This document shows positions 220 through 6,178 of a DNA stretch of 6,688 nt, in pieces. The notes beneath the pieces are model-generated. The model was given only the letters and a program-made list of their open reading frames with translations. It was not told the origin of the DNA and searched no databases. A program made the translations under genes and the position numbers. Position 1 is the stretch's first letter. Every line of letters starts with the position of its first letter. This DNA comes from a bacterium (GTDB lineage: Bacteria; SM23-31; JAUVVT01), in assembly GCA_030616165.1 (NCBI GenBank), contig JAUWXV010000206.1, forward strand, positions 1 through 6,688, in the 5' to 3' direction.

Positions 220-258
220 TCCCTTCCAAACCTTTCTTTAAAATTCCCTTCTGTTCAT
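220..258 (-). pseudogene. Frameshifted relic of the MN[RG]REFLKKGLEGIV leader (copy 1)
   Basis: Read on the minus strand from ATG at 258, the sequence starts M-N-R-R-E-F and then hits TAA, because the A-run has one base fewer than in the intact copy at 2831-2879. Restoring that base gives KKGLEG-like codons with few differences. No protein follows. Homology with the copy at 4738 also continues upstream of the ATG (about 274-293 matches 4756-4775 with one mismatch in 20), so this is a decayed gene start rather than chance similarity. Function is presumably lost. Confidence 0.65.
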
Positions 259-273
259 TTCCTCATATTTGCC

Positions 274-297
274 AATGTTTTTGAGATATAAAACATT
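274..297. repeat. 8-bp inverted repeat upstream of leader relic 1
   Basis: AATGTTTT (274-281) and AAAACATT (290-297) are exact reverse complements separated by 8 bases. The related stretch at 4756-4780 keeps the left arm but not the exact right arm. It lies about 16 bases before the ATG of the leader relic on the minus strand, so it may be a remnant operator or promoter element. Evidence for function is weak. Confidence 0.35.
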
Positions 298-399
298 ATT
301 ATTTTCTTAAACTTAAAATACTCTCCTGTGATAATTTTGGGTGGAGCAGAAAAATTGTCTATTTAATTACCTGCTTACTTTGACATATTATTTATGAAA

Positions 400-2763
400 C
401 TATTGATTTGAAAACAAAAAGTAACTTACATAAGCATCTCCTATCCCCAATTTTGTATCTTTTGATACCTTTATGTTATTATTTAAATCTGTTATTGTTA
501 TGGTAAGGGTATATACACCGACCTTGGTTGCGCTCATATCAATGGAGAGGTTAATCTCTTCGGTAGGATTTGAACCTTCGTATTCATAAGAAGCAGTAAT
601 ATCCTGTTTCCCCTCGCTCATTCCGACAAGTTTTCCTATATTCGAAAAGATTCTCGAGATAAGCGGCTTAGTTTCTAATTCCGTACTGATTTTGTATTCA
701 ACTGTAAATTCTGTTTTTTGCTCGGGATTAAGCATAAGGTTATAAATTTCAAAGTATATGTGCATAAGTTGGTCTTTATTAAAGATTCTTATCGGGTTAG
801 GTATTATTCTAAGTCCATGCTGTGCATACCTCGAATCTTCAATTAAGGTGTCTATAACGGATGCAAGTACAATATCGCTCATTTTGAGTTCACCGAATGT
901 GTATGAATCCACTTTCAATTTTTGTCTGTACGCACCAGTATTTTTTGCTTTTTCTTCTTGAAATTCTATAGCAAAGTTATATTCCCCCGGTTCAATTTCT
1001 AATTGATTCTGACCTATGAGATAGAAATTCCATTCTGGGTCGAGTTCTGAACTTAAAAGGGTTTTCTTTCTAATTATCGATTTATTTACCTCATTCCATT
1101 TATCATCAAAAAAGAAAATGCCTTCTCTAAAAGTTGTAGTTTTATAATCTTTTTCCTTCTGGAGATTAAGGTCATTTACAGGCAGGGCATAATATATTTC
1201 TACCAGTGATTTTCCATTATTCCCTCTAAAACTTGCAGTATAATAATCAAAATCAAATATTTTTCCGGGGAATTGAGGTTGATATGTTTCTGGTTTTTCT
1301 CTGTAAATTTTTTCAGCAATCTCTGGAAAATTTATCCCCGGGAAACGTGAATGCGCTCCTAATCGTAAATCACCAGTCGCATACGAGTCTGAAAATGCAA
1401 GGTTAAATCCTTTATAATACCAAACTTCAGTGGGTCCAAGGTCCGGAATTTCCATAGTTTCAGTTCCCGATAATCTTTTTTCTCTATATTCTGCTCCCAT
1501 TCTTACTGCCCGATTTGGAGAACCGTATCTTATATAGATTTTACCTCTATCTGTTTTCCATCCCGGAATGTCCTTTCTCTCGACACCAAATTTTAAGTTT
1601 GCATATGCTACTCTTGAATAATGTTCAAGCAATCTTTCGTTGTATTCAGATAAAAATAGAGGGTCTTTTTGCCTCCAGAATATTCTTTCGAATTCACTTT
1701 TCTCGGCAGAGGCTAAGTTTATAAATCCTTTGATTTCATCAGAAGGAACTATATACTCAATCGACTCAAAGACTGCTCTTTCATCCGACTGCATTATCGA
1801 TTTTGCTTTATTATATTCAATGAGTGCCAGGTCATCTTTACTTTGTTTATGGTATCCATATCCCAAAAAGAGATGTGCATCTTTGTCGTCCGGAGAATTT
1901 TCTAATATTATCTTCTGATAATCTATAAATTTATCAATCATATTAGCTTCGAGTGACAGAATGCTTAAATTATGAAGTGCAACCTTGTTATCCGGGTCAA
2001 TTTCAAGTACCTCTGAAAATGCATCAACAGCATTTACATAATTATACTCCTCATACGAAGAGAAATCTGCAAATCTTCCAGCGCCTTCGTCTCTTTGACT
2101 GAGAATCTCTTTTGATGTCAGTCCTTCGTCCCTGGTTCCTTCGTATTCATAAATATATGAGAGCATTTCCGGGCTAATAAAAGAGACAATACCCCCACCC
2201 CTTGAGTCAACACTTACCATATTTGAGAAATATTCCAACTCTTTTTTATATATTAGACCTAAATTAAGATTAACTTCGATGTTTTTTGGGTATTTCTCTT
2301 TTAGCAATTCAAAATATCTTTTTGAATTATATAAGAATCTTTGTTCCAGTATCAGCTGCCCGTAATGTATTCTATATGTTACATTATCCGGTTCTAATTT
2401 AATAGCCCTTTTTATGGCTATTTCAGCAAGGGCTCTTGAAAATACAGTTCCTTTTTCAATATATGCAAAAGATAGGTTATCATATGCTTCTGCAAATTTA
2501 TTATCTATACTTACTGCTTTTTTGAAGTAATCTACTGCTAAATCAATATTCCCTTCTCTATAATTTTCAACACCTTTGTTAAATAATTCTATAGCATCTT
2601 TATTATCACTCAATCTGGTGTCAATAGTTACCTGACCAAAAACTTCTTTATTATTAAACAGCAAATCAGTTCCTTCTAAAACAAAAAGAGAAGATAAAGT
2701 TAATAAACTGATTCTTAGCCATTTATTTCTTCTTAATTTATATATAATTTTTTCTAAAGCCAT
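400..2763 (-). CDS. TPR-repeat protein with GWxTD domain, exported
   Basis: 787 residues. The N-terminus has basic residues (KLRRNK) and a hydrophobic segment at about residues 17-30, ending near VFGQ (41-44), so it is probably exported by Sec or anchored. Residues about 55-130 and 240-330 read as TPR helices (FNKGVENYREGNIDLAVDYF; ALHNLSILSLEAN; HLFLGYGYHKQSKDDLALIE). The GWxTD domain covers about 355-450, with FWRQKDPL, the signature GWKTDRGKIYIRYG at 401-414, and EVWYY at 446-450. The C-terminal 500-787 looks like beta-rich, Ig-like modules. GWxTD proteins are common in FCB phyla and some Acidobacteria; their biochemical role is not established, though the TPRs suggest protein binding. ATG at 2763 is the first start in frame and has no evident Shine-Dalgarno. 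It lies 17 bases after the mini-ORF stop and is probably co-transcribed with the propeller gene. Confidence 0.9.
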   Translation of the reverse strand: MALEKIIYKLRRNKWLRISLLTLSSLFVLEGTDLLFNNKEVFGQVTIDTRLSDNKDAIELFNKGVENYREGNIDLAVDYFKKAVSIDNKFAEAYDNLSFAYIEKGTVFSRALAEIAIKRAIKLEPDNVTYRIHYGQLILEQRFLYNSKRYFELLKEKYPKNIEVNLNLGLIYKKELEYFSNMVSVDSRGGGIVSFISPEMLSYIYEYEGTRDEGLTSKEILSQRDEGAGRFADFSSYEEYNYVNAVDAFSEVLEIDPDNKVALHNLSILSLEANMIDKFIDYQKIILENSPDDKDAHLFLGYGYHKQSKDDLALIEYNKAKSIMQSDERAVFESIEYIVPSDEIKGFINLASAEKSEFERIFWRQKDPLFLSEYNERLLEHYSRVAYANLKFGVERKDIPGWKTDRGKIYIRYGSPNRAVRMGAEYREKRLSGTETMEIPDLGPTEVWYYKGFNLAFSDSYATGDLRLGAHSRFPGINFPEIAEKIYREKPETYQPQFPGKIFDFDYYTASFRGNNGKSLVEIYYALPVNDLNLQKEKDYKTTTFREGIFFFDDKWNEVNKSIIRKKTLLSSELDPEWNFYLIGQNQLEIEPGEYNFAIEFQEEKAKNTGAYRQKLKVDSYTFGELKMSDIVLASVIDTLIEDSRYAQHGLRIIPNPIRIFNKDQLMHIYFEIYNLMLNPEQKTEFTVEYKISTELETKPLISRIFSNIGKLVGMSEGKQDITASYEYEGSNPTEEINLSIDMSATKVGVYTLTITITDLNNNIKVSKDTKLGIGDAYVSYFLFSNQ

Positions 2764-2779
2764 ATTCTTTTATTACAGA

Positions 2780-2875
2780 TTATATTTTTAAAATATTACT
2801 ACAACTATAAACTAATGGAATACTTGCTATAACAATCCCTTCCAGACCTTTCTTTAAAAATTCCCTTCCGTTCAT
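2780..2875 (-). CDS. 31-codon leader-like mini-ORF (leader copy 2), possibly a relic
   Basis: ATG at 2875 sits one base after the propeller stop codon. It encodes MNGREFLKKGLEGIV, then IASIPLVYSCSNILKI and TAA. The layout is that of a Tat-type lipoprotein signal: a basic n-region, an apolar IASIPLV stretch and a possible weak lipobox ending in C25. However, the twin-arginine is G-R instead of R-R, and the frame ends before any mature domain. At DNA level 2831-2879 matches 4413-4461 in the propeller gene at 46 of 49 bases. It is most likely the preserved 5' end of a lost gene, but the 1-base and 17-base gaps to its neighbours would also suit a translated coupling peptide. It is out of frame with the downstream GWxTD gene. 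Confidence 0.45.
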   Translation of the reverse strand: MNGREFLKKGLEGIVIASIPLVYSCSNILKI

Positions 2876-2876
2876 T

Positions 2877-4457
2877 TTATTTTAACAATAAAATCTTTTT
2901 TGTTTCTACAAATTCATTTGTTTGCAATCTATAAAAATATATTCCAGAAGGAACATTTATCCCATTATATGCTTTCCCATCCCACATTACAGAATATTTT
3001 CCTGGAACTTTTTTTTGATTGACAAGGGTTTTAATTTTTTGTCCCAATATGTTGTAAATATCTAATCTTACATCACTTATCTTTGGCAGATAATATTCAA
3101 TTGTTGTATTAGGATTAAATGGATTCGGATAGTTTTGGAAAAGTTTATATTTTTCATGAATTTTTATTTCTCTTATTTTTTCATCTGTTGATGTTATGAT
3201 ATCCCTTGAAAAAACAGAAACTGCATGATCCATTTCACCAACAACATAAACATTTTTATTATCCGGGCTTACTATAACAAAACGAGCACCATCTAATCCG
3301 TCAACTCCATCAATGCCATCTTTTTTGTATTCTAAAAATGTGAGTTTTCCTGTTGTTAAATCTCTTTGGAAAACAGCAACTGCATCACCCTCGCAACTTG
3401 CAACATAAACATTTTTATTGTTAGGGCTAACTGTAACTGAAAAAGGATTAAGTAATCCATCTACCCCATCAACACCTTGTTTTTTGTATTCTAAAAACAT
3501 GAGTTTTCCTGTTTCTAAATCTCTTTGGAAAACAGCAACTGCATGTTCGCCAGTTCCAGCAGCATAAACATTTTTATTATCAGGACTTACTGTTACTGAG
3601 CGACTACAACATAATCCATCTACACCACCAACGTTATCTTTATGATATTCTAAAAATGTGAGTTTTCCTGTTGTTAAATCTCTTTGGAAAACAGCAACCG
3701 CATCACTATAACCAGTAACATAAACATTTTTATTGTCAGGGCTAACTGTGACTGAAAAAGGTAACATTAATTCAACTCCATGTTTTTTATATTCTAAAAA
3801 TGTTAGTTTTCCTGTTGTTGAATCTCTTTGGAAGACTGCGACTGCATTATCTATGTTACCAGTAGCATAAACATTTTTATTGTCAGGGCTTATTGTAACA
3901 GAAAGAGCGCCAGCTAATCCATCTACACCATCAACACCATCTTTATGATATTCTAAAAATGTTAGTTTTCCTGTTTCCAAATCTCTTGTAAAAACAAAAA
4001 CTGTGTGATCACCAGTAACATAAACATTTTTATTGTCAGGACTAACTGTGACTGAAAAAGGTAACATTAATTCAACTCCATGTTTTTTATATTCTAAAAA
4101 TGTTAGTTTTCCTGTTGTTAAGTCTCTTTGGAAAACAACAACTCCATCATCATTAACACCAGTAGCATAAACATTTTTATTGTCAGGGCTTACTATAACA
4201 GAATTAGCGCCAAATAATCCATCTACACCATTCTGATTATCTTTTAAAACTTGTTGAAATGTTAATTTCCCGTAATAAGTTTGTCCAAAAACTTCATTCT
4301 TATTAAACAATAACTCAGCCCCTGCCAAAATACTTAAAGATAAAACATAAGGAATAATTTTATTTCTTAATTTAGTTAAGAAGCTTTTTTTAGGAATAGT
4401 TAATTCTTCATTAACAATCCCTTCCAGACCTTTCTTTAAAAATTGTCTTCTGTTCAT
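2877..4457 (-). CDS. Secreted seven-bladed beta-propeller protein with T9SS C-terminal sorting domain
   Basis: 526 residues from the chosen ATG at 4457. The frame is open to 4496, but the extra 13 codons lie in a palindromic repeat, while 4457 begins the leader MNRRQFLKKGLEGIV that recurs in the window. A hydrophobic segment (about 34-51) ending near VFGQ (residue 59) is the likely export signal. Seven propeller units follow, each with S-P-[DN]-N-K-N-V-Y (starting near residues 90, 139, 190, 239, 291, 344 and 397), then AVAVFQRD-TTGKLTFLEY. This is the lactonase-like/YVTN repeat type; enzymatic activity is not shown and seems unlikely to be the main role. From about 437 to the end is a type A T9SS sorting domain: NYPNPFNP (442-449), IYNILGQKIKTLV, WDG, SGIYFYRLQ and the C-terminal KKILLLK. 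Known T9SS cargo cross the outer membrane and are released or anchored at the surface. Ligand unknown. No clear Shine-Dalgarno. Confidence 0.92.
   Translation of the reverse strand: MNRRQFLKKGLEGIVNEELTIPKKSFLTKLRNKIIPYVLSLSILAGAELLFNKNEVFGQTYYGKLTFQQVLKDNQNGVDGLFGANSVIVSPDNKNVYATGVNDDGVVVFQRDLTTGKLTFLEYKKHGVELMLPFSVTVSPDNKNVYVTGDHTVFVFTRDLETGKLTFLEYHKDGVDGVDGLAGALSVTISPDNKNVYATGNIDNAVAVFQRDSTTGKLTFLEYKKHGVELMLPFSVTVSPDNKNVYVTGYSDAVAVFQRDLTTGKLTFLEYHKDNVGGVDGLCCSRSVTVSPDNKNVYAAGTGEHAVAVFQRDLETGKLMFLEYKKQGVDGVDGLLNPFSVTVSPNNKNVYVASCEGDAVAVFQRDLTTGKLTFLEYKKDGIDGVDGLDGARFVIVSPDNKNVYVVGEMDHAVSVFSRDIITSTDEKIREIKIHEKYKLFQNYPNPFNPNTTIEYYLPKISDVRLDIYNILGQKIKTLVNQKKVPGKYSVMWDGKAYNGINVPSGIYFYRLQTNEFVETKKILLLK
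3207..4277 (-). repeat. Tandem coding repeats (propeller blades, about 147-159 bp units)
   Basis: Seven in-frame units of 49-53 codons form the propeller. Conserved DNA words such as ACATTTTTATTGTCAGG and TTTTCCTGTTGTTAAATCTC recur through the array. Two stretches, 3711-3819 and 4011-4119, are 300 bases apart and differ at one position in 109, so a two-blade block was duplicated or converted recently. The other blades are more diverged. Confidence 0.85.
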
Positions 4458-4461
4458 TTTA
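4413..4461 (-). repeat. Leader-coding repeat (copy 3, in frame with propeller gene)
   Basis: These 49 bases match 2831-2879 with three mismatches. They encode the first residues of the propeller protein (MNRRQFLKKGLEGIV) plus a few upstream bases. This is the only copy that retains the R-R pair and is also joined to a long ORF. The similarity to the relic at 4615-4738 extends further downstream: AAGC, seven T, AGGAATA is identical at 4381-4398 and 4646-4663, encoding IPKKSFL in both. Confidence 0.8.
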
Positions 4462-4469
4462 TTCAGAAT

Positions 4470-4513
4470 TGTAGGGACAGAACAGTGCCTGCACACTGTG
4501 TTCTGTCCCTACA
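4470..4513. repeat. Palindromic GTAGGGACAG repeat, copy A (hairpin)
   Basis: TGTAGGGACAGAACA (4470-4484) and TGTTCTGTCCCTACA (4499-4513) are perfect 15-bp inverted arms around a 14-base loop. It starts 12 bases upstream of the propeller ATG on the minus strand, so if transcribed it forms a strong hairpin in the 5' untranslated region. It resembles small interspersed palindromes or MITE-like elements. No transposase is present. It interrupts sequence otherwise shared with the start region at 4738-4780. Confidence 0.8.
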
Positions 4514-4540
4514 TAATAATCATTTGTTATTAAATATATT

Positions 4541-4567
4541 GTAGGGACAGGACATTGTCCTGTCCTT
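4541..4567. repeat. Palindromic GTAGGGACAG repeat, copy B
   Basis: GGACAGGACA (4545-4554) pairs with TGTCCTGTCC (4556-4565) around a single central T. The left flank ATTGTAGGGACAG is identical to that of copy A, 70 bases away, so both belong to one family; copy B is shorter and its right end is decayed. It is located in the divergent intergenic region. Confidence 0.7.
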
Positions 4568-4614
4568 CTGTTCTTATTATTTCTCTATTTCAAGAAATAT
4601 CAAGAAAATATATA

Positions 4615-4738
4615 TCATTTATTATTTAATAAGGCACTACCTAAAAAGCTTTTTTTAGGAATATTTTCATTATTAACAATATTTTCAAGAGGCATTTTAT
4701 TTGTTCCATTTAATTTTATAAAATTCTCTTCCGTTCAT
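4615..4738 (-). pseudogene. Degenerate leader relic (copy 4)
   Basis: From ATG at 4738 the minus strand reads MNGREF, then YKIKWNK and TAA. A second frame from ATG at 4695 reads MPLENIVNNENIPKKSFLGS, then ALLNNK and TGA at 4615. The second piece aligns with the propeller N-terminus (LEGIVNEELTIPKKSFLTKL), so the two pieces together are the same leader with an insertion and frameshift between them. It ends before the hydrophobic export segment. It lies head-to-tail behind the propeller gene start and has no mature protein attached, so it is a truncated paralogous gene start. Confidence 0.65.
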
Positions 4739-5040
4739 TTTATTCAGATTTTTTTAATGTTTTTGAAATATAAAAATGTTATGTTAAGAATAACTATAAT
4801 TAAATTTTTAACCGATATTAATATAAGTTTCAATTATTAATATATTTCCAATTTATTAAACAAACCATAATTAAGAAAGTTTCTATAAATATAACAATTT
4901 TTTCAGTAGATGTCAAATGAACTTACAGGTAATTTTAATAAAATTTTTTTATTGAAAAATATATTATCATGTCATATATTATATATAAGCCATAAATTTA
5001 AAAAAATATATCCTGGCATTCTAAAATAAGGGGTATAATT

Positions 5041-5895
5041 ATGATTAAGAAGATTTCTTTAATTATAATTTTTATTTTCGCAAATTTCATCCAGCTATCG
5101 ATAACACCCGTTTACAGTCAAGATTTTGAGAGTAACGTTTCATTAAACGCAGTAAAACTCCCTGAGGAAGTGAGATTTGATTACTTAGACCTTCCTCAGA
5201 AATTATCTGTATATATAGATAACTATGACTGGTCGAATGAAGAATACCCTTATAAAATTGAATTAAATGTAAATATATTCTTTGAACAGATATACCGTGG
5301 ATATGAAGACGCAATTAGAGGACGTTTCATAGTATCTACAAATACTGGAATTCAATATGCCGACAAAGAATGGAGATTCCCATACAAGAGAGGTGACTCG
5401 ATAGACCATATCAATCCGGAGTTTTCACCATTTTTGGGTCTGATTGACCATTATTTATATATCATAATAGGCAATGAAATGGATATGCTTGGTGAACATC
5501 TTGGTACTCCCTTCTATAGAAAAGCAGATGAAGTATGCAATCTCGGAAAATTTTCGAGGTATCCATGGTGGTGGGATAAAAGACAGGAAAAAATTAGATA
5601 CATCTTATCTGAAGACCACAAACCTTTCAGAAGTATGTTAGCATATTTTAACCTGGCTTTATACGAACTTGAAACAGATAACAGAATCGATGCATTAAAG
5701 TTCGGACTGGAAGTAATTAAAATCCTCCAATCAATCATCGACATCTATGAAGAACAAGATTTCTGTGAAGATTTTTTAAACAGGAATTATCGAGAATTCA
5801 ACAAATTAGCCTCCATCCCCGGGGGTGAGAGCATCAAAGAGACCCTCATCAAAATTGACCCTGAGCATGAAGATTATTACATAAAAAATGAATGA
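5041..5895 (+). CDS. DUF4835 / PorD-like protein, probable type IX secretion accessory
   Basis: 284 residues, close to the usual family length of about 290-300. A Sec signal peptide is clear: MIKK, then the hydrophobic ISLIIIFIFANFIQLS, with likely cleavage after VYSQ (residue 27). About 45-115 is a beta-rich N-terminal part (LSVYIDNYDWSNEEYPYKIE corresponds to the family's F/I-N-x-x-x-W-x-N region). The best signature is at about 131-168: FLGLIDHYLYIIIGNEMDML, then GTPFYRKADEVCNLG, matching the DUF4835 pattern of tyrosine-rich helix, I-I-G-x-x-x-D and G-T-P-Y/F-x-x-K-A. A C-terminal helical part follows. PorD is needed for T9SS function in some Bacteroidota, probably in the periplasm. The match is by eye and the sequence is divergent. 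It is transcribed divergently from a T9SS cargo gene. AAGGGG about 7 bases before the ATG may be its ribosome binding site. Confidence 0.72.
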   Translation: MIKKISLIIIFIFANFIQLSITPVYSQDFESNVSLNAVKLPEEVRFDYLDLPQKLSVYIDNYDWSNEEYPYKIELNVNIFFEQIYRGYEDAIRGRFIVSTNTGIQYADKEWRFPYKRGDSIDHINPEFSPFLGLIDHYLYIIIGNEMDMLGEHLGTPFYRKADEVCNLGKFSRYPWWWDKRQEKIRYILSEDHKPFRSMLAYFNLALYELETDNRIDALKFGLEVIKILQSIIDIYEEQDFCEDFLNRNYREFNKLASIPGGESIKETLIKIDPEHEDYYIKNE

Positions 5896-5912
5896 AATGT
5901 TAATTCATTTTT
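5884..5912 (+). terminator. Possible weak terminator overlapping the PorD-like stop codon
   Basis: AAAAATGAAT (5884-5893) and ATTCATTTTT (5903-5912) are perfect 10-bp inverted arms with a 9-base loop; the second arm ends in a T-run. The TGA stop lies at the base of the loop. The stem has only two G-C pairs, so it is weak. The adjacent palindrome at 5912-5939 could add to termination. Confidence 0.4.
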
Positions 5913-5939
5913 CTCTGTTGTTGACAACACCAACAGAGA
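5912..5939. repeat. 28-bp palindromic repeat, copy 1
   Basis: Arms TCTCTGTTGTTG and CACCAACAGAGA surround an ACAA loop, with one mismatch in 12 pairs. A second copy lies at 6119-6146 and differs at three positions. The inferred consensus is a perfect 12-bp palindrome with left arm TCTCTGTTGGTG. It probably belongs to a dispersed intergenic repeat family. Confidence 0.75.
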
Positions 5940-5984
5940 TCAAAATCAATCATCTATATCGAGGACTAAAAATAATGCTGTGTG

Positions 5985-6070: not shown

Positions 6071-6118
6071 AACTAAAGGGGGTTGTAAAATAATTAAATT
6101 TCTTTTATTATACTATCT

Positions 6119-6146
6119 TCTCTGTTGGTGACAACACATACAGAGA
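6119..6146. repeat. 28-bp palindromic repeat, copy 2
   Basis: Arms TCTCTGTTGGTG and CACATACAGAGA around ACAA, with two unpaired positions. It matches copy 1 at 25 of 28 positions, and the changes hit different arms in the two copies. It ends 32 bases before the start codon of the partial ORF. Confidence 0.7.
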
Positions 6147-6178
6147 GTAAATATTTATTTTTAATAGAATGTAGAATT

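What the first reader, a model, noticed from the sequence alone, without database searches (positions are those of the whole stretch)
220..4738. One short leader-coding sequence occurs four times on the same strand, mostly without a protein attached
DNA encoding MN[RG]REFLKKGLEGIV appears at 258-220, 2875-2831, 4457-4413 and 4738-4615, all minus strand. Copies 2 and 3 match at 46 of 49 bases. Only copy 3 leads into a long protein; copy 1 is frameshifted, copy 2 ends after 31 codons, and copy 4 is split by an insertion. The spread suggests that gene starts are being copied and grafted, by recombination between paralogs or by a small mobile unit. The sequence observations are direct; the mechanism is inference.
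Basis: partly seen in the sequence, partly recalled or inferred. Interest (0 to 1): 0.6.

Follow-up and report, generated by a model that had tools for sequence, protein, structure and literature searches.

The report
One export leader on many proteins
In a little-known lineage of uncultured bacteria, with one relative from a cold-seep genome catalogue, one short gene start that encodes an export-and-membrane-anchor signal occurs at least 13 times in a genome, joined to unrelated protein bodies or left orphaned, which suggests that gene starts are being recombined onto new proteins.

Summary
The repeats are real. They are the first half of a 29-residue leader, MNRREFLKKGLEGIVIGSIPLIxxCxKNP, a predicted twin-arginine lipoprotein signal. 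The genome has 13 copies on three contigs: 7 head long ORFs, 5 are orphaned or broken, 1 is cut by a contig end. The attached mature domains are mutually unrelated (BsuPI, PrcB_C, a lactonase propeller with a sorting tail, a weak DUF3108-like match, unknowns). Leader codons match far more often than codon usage predicts (0.82 vs 0.43) and more than near-saturated orthologues do between genomes. Window copy 3 is a chimera: 51 bp of this leader joined inside a second leader type. Copy 4 joins the same two types differently. Copy 1 is the remnant of a gene still present beside the same ABC-transporter gene in a same-family genome. So 'gene starts are copied and grafted' is well supported as recombination between leaders, probably with exchange between lineages. 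'A small mobile unit' is not supported: edges vary, and no hairpin was found, nor a match in viral, phage or plasmid collections. Closest known ideas are terminal reassortment of type III effectors (orphan termini) and the vpma/vsp lipoprotein families. Experimental proof and the exact recombination route are missing.

The parts
220..258 (-). Copy 1 (w1): leader A remnant, 1-base deletion, no mature part; orthologous locus in G001 carries a 75-aa leader gene
   Evidence: G001 gene
274..292 (-). Upstream element TTTATATCTCAAAAACATT before copy 1; only 3 genome sites with at most 1 mismatch, all before leader A copies
400..2763 (-). 787-aa TPR + GWxTD protein whose N-terminus (MALEKII...LFNNKEVFGQ) resembles leader B; start lies 13 bp behind the stop of orphan copy 2
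   Evidence: weak DNA similarity to the other B leaders
2782..2875 (-). Copy 2 (w2): orphan leader A with lipobox Cys, 31 codons, no mature part; ATG overlaps the end of the 539-aa ORF
2877..4457 (-). Gene of copy 3 (w3): 526 aa from the leader ATG; chimeric A/B leader, then lactonase-type beta-propeller, then C-terminal type IX-like sorting tail
4413..4457 (-). Leader A part of copy 3 (MNRRQFLKKGLEGIV)
4293..4427 (-). Leader B part of copy 3, matching G005 leader B (E 1.2e-9), overlapping leader A at LE-x-IV
4468..4513 (.). REP-like palindrome between copies 3 and 4, one of at least 40 in the genome
4615..4738 (-). Copy 4 (w4): first ~20 bp of leader A joined to the start of leader B (MPLENIVNNENIPKKSFL...), broken
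4756..4774 (-). Upstream element TTTATATTTCAAAAACATT before copy 4

Best explanation
The repeated DNA encodes a complete export leader, predicted to be a twin-arginine lipoprotein signal peptide (RRxFLK motif, hydrophobic stretch, lipobox Cys, then KNP). The leader DNA serves as a shared recombination module. By homologous or short-homology recombination between leader copies, gene starts (sometimes with the upstream element) are duplicated, moved onto new secreted-protein bodies, and exchanged between related lineages. Small operons of unrelated lipoproteins with one common start result, and leaders that lose their body remain as orphans, typically at the 3' end of an array. Shown: copies, shared DNA, unrelated bodies, chimeric leader, orthologous remnant, excess codon identity. 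Inferred: the recombination route, exchange between lineages, Tat/lipoprotein processing.
For: 13 leader copies on C197, C219 and C282. Bodies unrelated by pairwise BLASTP and assigned to different Pfam families: BsuPI, PrcB_C, Lactonase + FlgD/Por tail, sub-threshold DUF3108-like. Codon identity at identical residues 0.82 versus 0.43 +/- 0.03 simulated from codon usage of the first 35 codons. Between genomes: own-G001 leaders 0.76 versus ABC permease 0.49 and TatC 0.56; own-G005 leaders 0.86 versus TatC 0.41 and ClpX 0.42. G001_2 versus c282_2 is 22/22 codons, while G001_1 stays at orthologue level (0.55-0.77), so copies differ in their history. Copy 3 is an A/B chimera, copy 4 another A/B joint. 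In G005 two leader-B genes match at 24/28 leader codons but 66/138 codons of their propellers (Fisher p 3e-4). c219_1 and c282_2 share the 5' leader plus PISG and the 3' spacer plus next leader, but not the middle. TatC is present in all six class genomes.
Against: No recombination event has been observed directly, and no recombinase gene was recognised among the ORFs of the leader-bearing contigs inspected. Copies are short, so trees cannot order the events, and pairwise codon comparisons are not independent. Within-contig similarity is only slightly higher than between contigs (0.92 vs 0.90, permutation p 0.04). The bin of the G005 contig carrying the leader A copy is uncertain (it carries 16S rRNA, and its composition is ambiguous). 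Signal-peptide type was judged by eye; no predictor was available.
Confidence: 0.62

Rival explanations
1. Ordinary tandem gene duplication of one lipoprotein gene, followed by very fast divergence of the mature part while the leader is kept by selection for export.
For: Arrays are tandem and same-strand; c219_1 and c282_2 share both unit ends, as duplicates with a diverged middle might.
Against: Bodies belong to different Pfam families and protein selection does not explain codon identity of 0.82 versus 0.43 with uncommon codons kept (AAC, AAG, TTG). It does not produce the A/B chimera.
Confidence: 0.13
2. The leader DNA is itself a functional nucleic-acid element (recombination site, mRNA control or translation element), so it is conserved at base level in every copy and species, as 5' regions in vpma loci are.
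For: High base-level identity across genera and probably families; even the dead copy 1 is 107 bp alignable with its orthologue; the upstream element has only 3 genome sites with at most 1 mismatch, all before leader copies.
Against: G001_1 has only ordinary codon identity (0.55-0.77) to own copies; no unusual folding; two different leader types both behave this way; no fixed edges.
Confidence: 0.17
3. A small mobile unit or gene-cassette system with its own integrase moves leader-plus-body cassettes, the leader acting as attachment site; the terminal orphan leader is the original site.
For: All six array ends that are complete finish with an orphan or truncated leader (w1, w2, c219_3, c282_3, G001_2, G005); gene content of arrays differs between genomes.
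Against: No recombinase recognised on the contigs, no common edges, no hairpin, no relatives in viral contigs, phages or plasmids. In two cases a generic repeat (c282_3) or repeat-like sequence (G005) follows the orphan, which gives a simpler reason for loss.
Confidence: 0.06

Closest known systems
Terminal reassortment of type III effectors, with orphan effector termini (ORPHETs); cited via PMC3826837, original paper not held, remainder from my own knowledge
   Same: An N-terminal export signal, sometimes with its promoter, is joined to new bodies, and orphan termini remain in the genome.
   Different: There the signal serves type III secretion by plant pathogens; here a predicted Tat lipoprotein signal in tandem arrays of a free-living uncultured lineage, with two leader types recombined with each other.
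vpma (Mycoplasma agalactiae) and vsp (M. bovis) lipoprotein gene families (PMC2268961)
   Same: 5' untranslated and signal-peptide DNA are conserved within the family and between species, while bodies of vpma and vsp genes share no significant homology.
   Different: Those loci use a locus-encoded tyrosine recombinase, sites at -72 to -1 and inversions for phase variation. Here no recombinase was recognised on the contigs, no inversions were seen, and bodies belong to different domain families.
SitA lipoprotein toxins of myxobacteria (PMC5562445)
   Same: Lipoprotein N-terminus with diverse C-terminal domains in repeated gene units.
   Different: SitA bodies are toxins with cognate immunity genes and a larger conserved N-terminal domain; no toxin domain or immunity pair was recognised here.

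Membership tests
Tat-exported lipoprotein signal peptide | Twin arginine with RRxFLK-type motif | tested here: met
   RREFLKK in 9 of 10 aligned leaders; window copy 2 has G in place of the first R
Tat-exported lipoprotein signal peptide | Lipobox Cys at the end of the hydrophobic stretch | tested here: met
   Invariant C25 in ten leaders; copy 3 lost it through the A/B joint
Tat-exported lipoprotein signal peptide | Host has the Tat translocase | tested here: met
   TatC over the cut-off in all 6 genomes of the class
Tat-exported lipoprotein signal peptide | Export and lipidation shown in cells | not testable with these tools
Terminal reassortment | One N-terminal export signal on otherwise unrelated bodies | tested here: met
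Terminal reassortment | Orphan termini present in the genome | tested here: met
   w1, w2, w4, c219_3, c282_3
Terminal reassortment | Signal for type III secretion | tested here: not met
   The leader is of Tat/lipoprotein type
vpma/vsp phase-variable lipoproteins | Locus-encoded tyrosine recombinase | tested here: not met
   None recognised among ORFs on C197, C219, C282 and G001 C285, though contigs are short and not every ORF was searched against families
vpma/vsp phase-variable lipoproteins | Invertible promoter or inverted copies | tested here: inconclusive
   All copies on a contig share one strand; contigs are short and from one consensus assembly
Integron-like cassette array | Folded attC-like site | tested here: not met
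   z-scores 0.06, -0.89, 0.22, 0.12, -0.49
Integron-like cassette array | Integrase gene | tested here: inconclusive
   None recognised on the leader-bearing contigs; the genome was not searched for integrases

The most novel reading that the evidence does not exclude
Leader-coding DNA acts as the exchange point of an open system in which this lineage swaps secreted bodies behind standard lipoprotein leaders, within and between species, so that new surface proteins are assembled from a shared start and an imported body.
Probability: 0.3. Interest if true: 0.75.

Novelty: new variant of a known kind. Interest (0 to 1): 0.52.

Why it matters
How a newly acquired gene obtains an export signal is rarely caught in the act. 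Here one short leader is found on several unrelated bodies, as orphans, and in two chimeric joints with a second leader, with base-level identity that outruns synonymous saturation. If confirmed, it is a tractable natural example of signal-peptide grafting outside pathogens and outside type III effectors, and it gives a search recipe (leader DNA conserved, body not) for other genomes.

Tried and rejected
Mobile-element reading: no relatives in viral contigs, plasmids or phages; no strand folding. Genome-collection scan for leader A found only the G001 record JAUVVT01; 60 relatives gave only G001 and G005 beyond the own genome. Codon bias as the cause of leader similarity: rejected by simulation; other RRxFL[K/R] leaders match the leader codons at 0.53 (38/72). 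BsuPI and PrcB_C searches across the class found one further BsuPI protein, with a different N-terminus, in the own genome. Composition test of the G005 contig was inconclusive and the G001 centroid failed because two contigs read N. Literature searches for signal-peptide shuffling returned mostly expression engineering. Structure prediction was not used: only window proteins were clearly allowed, and the informative bodies lie on other contigs.

Full report
What was checked. The window is a whole contig (C197, 6688 bp) of a 3.74 Mb draft genome in 343 contigs. All four reported copies are there. The 15-residue peptide is the first half of a 29-residue leader, called leader A here: MNRREFLKKGLEGIVIGSIPLIxxCxKNP. 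It has a twin-arginine motif and a lipobox cysteine; TatC is encoded in this genome and in all five others of the class. Export and lipidation are predictions.

Copies in the genome. BLASTN and TBLASTN place leader A on three contigs only. Window: copies 1 to 4. C219 (L043): 1606, 2100, 2684, 4431, 4988 and one cut off by the contig end at 5589. C282 (L044, minus strand): 5062, 4559, 4044. Seven head ORFs of 156 to 526 aa, five are orphaned or broken, one cannot be judged. The contig ending inside a leader suggests that the repeat breaks the assembly and that 13 is a minimum.

The bodies are unrelated. Pfam gives PrcB_C (C282 5062) and BsuPI (C282 4559), a sub-threshold DUF3108-like match (C219 2100), a lactonase propeller with FlgD/Por sorting tail (window copy 3), and nothing significant for the rest. 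Pairwise BLASTP of the bodies shows no relation among the leader A proteins; the one match is between the BsuPI body on C282 and part of a G005 protein that carries the other leader, type B (BsuPI there is sub-threshold).

The leader is shared as DNA. Where two copies encode the same residue they use the same codon in 0.82 of cases; drawing codons from the genome's usage in first 35 codons gives 0.43, s.d. 0.03, maximum of 2000 simulations 0.53. Other RRxFL[K/R] leaders agree with the leader A codons in 0.53 (38/72). Pairs of copies are not independent, so no exact probability is claimed.

Comparison between genomes. In G001 (same family; JAUVVT01, isolate CSMAG_1171; the CSMAG prefix occurs in a global cold-seep genome catalogue, PMC10491686) the ABC permease orthologue has 0.49 codon identity at identical residues and TatC 0.56; leaders have 0.76. 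In G005 (another family) TatC has 0.41 and ClpX 0.42, which equals the codon-usage expectation, while the leader A copy has 0.86. Copies differ: G001_2 against c282_2 is 22 of 22, G001_1 against own copies is 0.55 to 0.77, no more than orthologues for most pairs. A uniform base-level constraint would not predict that. Caveat: the G005 contig carries a 16S rRNA gene and its composition does not settle its bin.

A second leader type and chimeras. G005 has two genes whose leader B begins MPLENIINNETRISKKGVLSRLKNKITPYVLSLIILAGAYFGC or similar; bodies are PD40 propellers. Their leaders agree at 24 of 28 codons, their propellers at 66 of 138. Window copy 3 matches leader A for 51 bp (48 identical to copy 2) and continues as leader B, 97 columns alignable with G005. 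The joint lies where both leaders encode LE-x-IV. Copy 4 has about 20 bp of leader A followed by a leader B start. The B part of copy 3 agrees with the two G005 leaders at 0.77 and 0.83; the second lies on contig C66, whose composition is clearly that of G005. The 787-aa GWxTD protein next to orphan copy 2 has a similar end of the signal peptide (LFNNKEVFGQ), but its DNA similarity is within shuffled range or barely above, so its membership is weak.

Copy 1 is a remnant. In G001 a leader gene of 75 codons sits behind the same ABC permease gene on the opposite strand, as copy 1 does; the two loci align over 107 bp including the upstream element. That element, TTTATATYTCAAAAACATT, occurs with at most one mismatch at just three places in the genome, all before leader A copies.

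Edges and array order. Upstream similarity stops at the start codon in some copies, reaches the promoter-like element in others, and a 25-bp spacer in c219_2 and c282_3; downstream it stops between codon 15 and about codon 38. There is no fixed-end unit. Each of the six array ends that could be read finishes with an orphan or truncated leader (w1, w2, c219_3, c282_3, G001_2, G005). The number is small, and in C282 a generic repeat and REP palindrome follow the orphan, so I treat it as a pattern to test, not as a mechanism.

Mechanism. Best supported: recombination between leader copies, duplicating gene starts, joining them to other bodies and mixing two leader types, with exchange between related lineages. 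Shown are the products; the route (RecA-dependent crossover or conversion, or short-homology joining) and the exchange between lineages are inferred. Duplication with divergence, base-level function of the leader, and a dedicated cassette system are rivals with lower probability.

Known relatives of the idea. Terminal reassortment of type III effectors with orphan termini (named in PMC3826837) and vpma/vsp lipoprotein genes, whose 5' and signal-peptide DNA is conserved between species while bodies are not homologous (PMC2268961). SitA lipoproteins are a looser parallel (PMC5562445). This case differs from each in signal type, in lack of a recognised recombinase or toxin, and in the chimeric leaders. 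I therefore rate it a new variant of a known kind.

Noticed in passing
window 4468-4513 and 4538-4574: REP-like palindrome (TTGTAGGGACAGAACAGTGCCTGCACACTGTGTTCTGTCCCTACA); at least 40 related sites on many contigs of the genome, one just behind orphan leader c282_3.
   Followed up: partly
window 3190-4280: Six to seven tandem ~150-bp repeats within the propeller gene (blade-coding units of 141-159 bp), as expected for a beta-propeller.
   Followed up: no
window 5041-5895: DUF4835 protein (E 4e-20) on the opposite strand, unrelated to the leaders.
   Followed up: no
L043 2905-4362 and 155-1354: Two ORFs without Pfam match beside the leader arrays; the first has visibly higher G+C than its neighbours.
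   Followed up: no
window 5911-5944 and 6118-6151: Two copies (85%) of a 34-bp imperfect palindrome TTCTCTGTTGTTGACAACACCAACAGAGA behind the DUF4835 gene.
   Followed up: no
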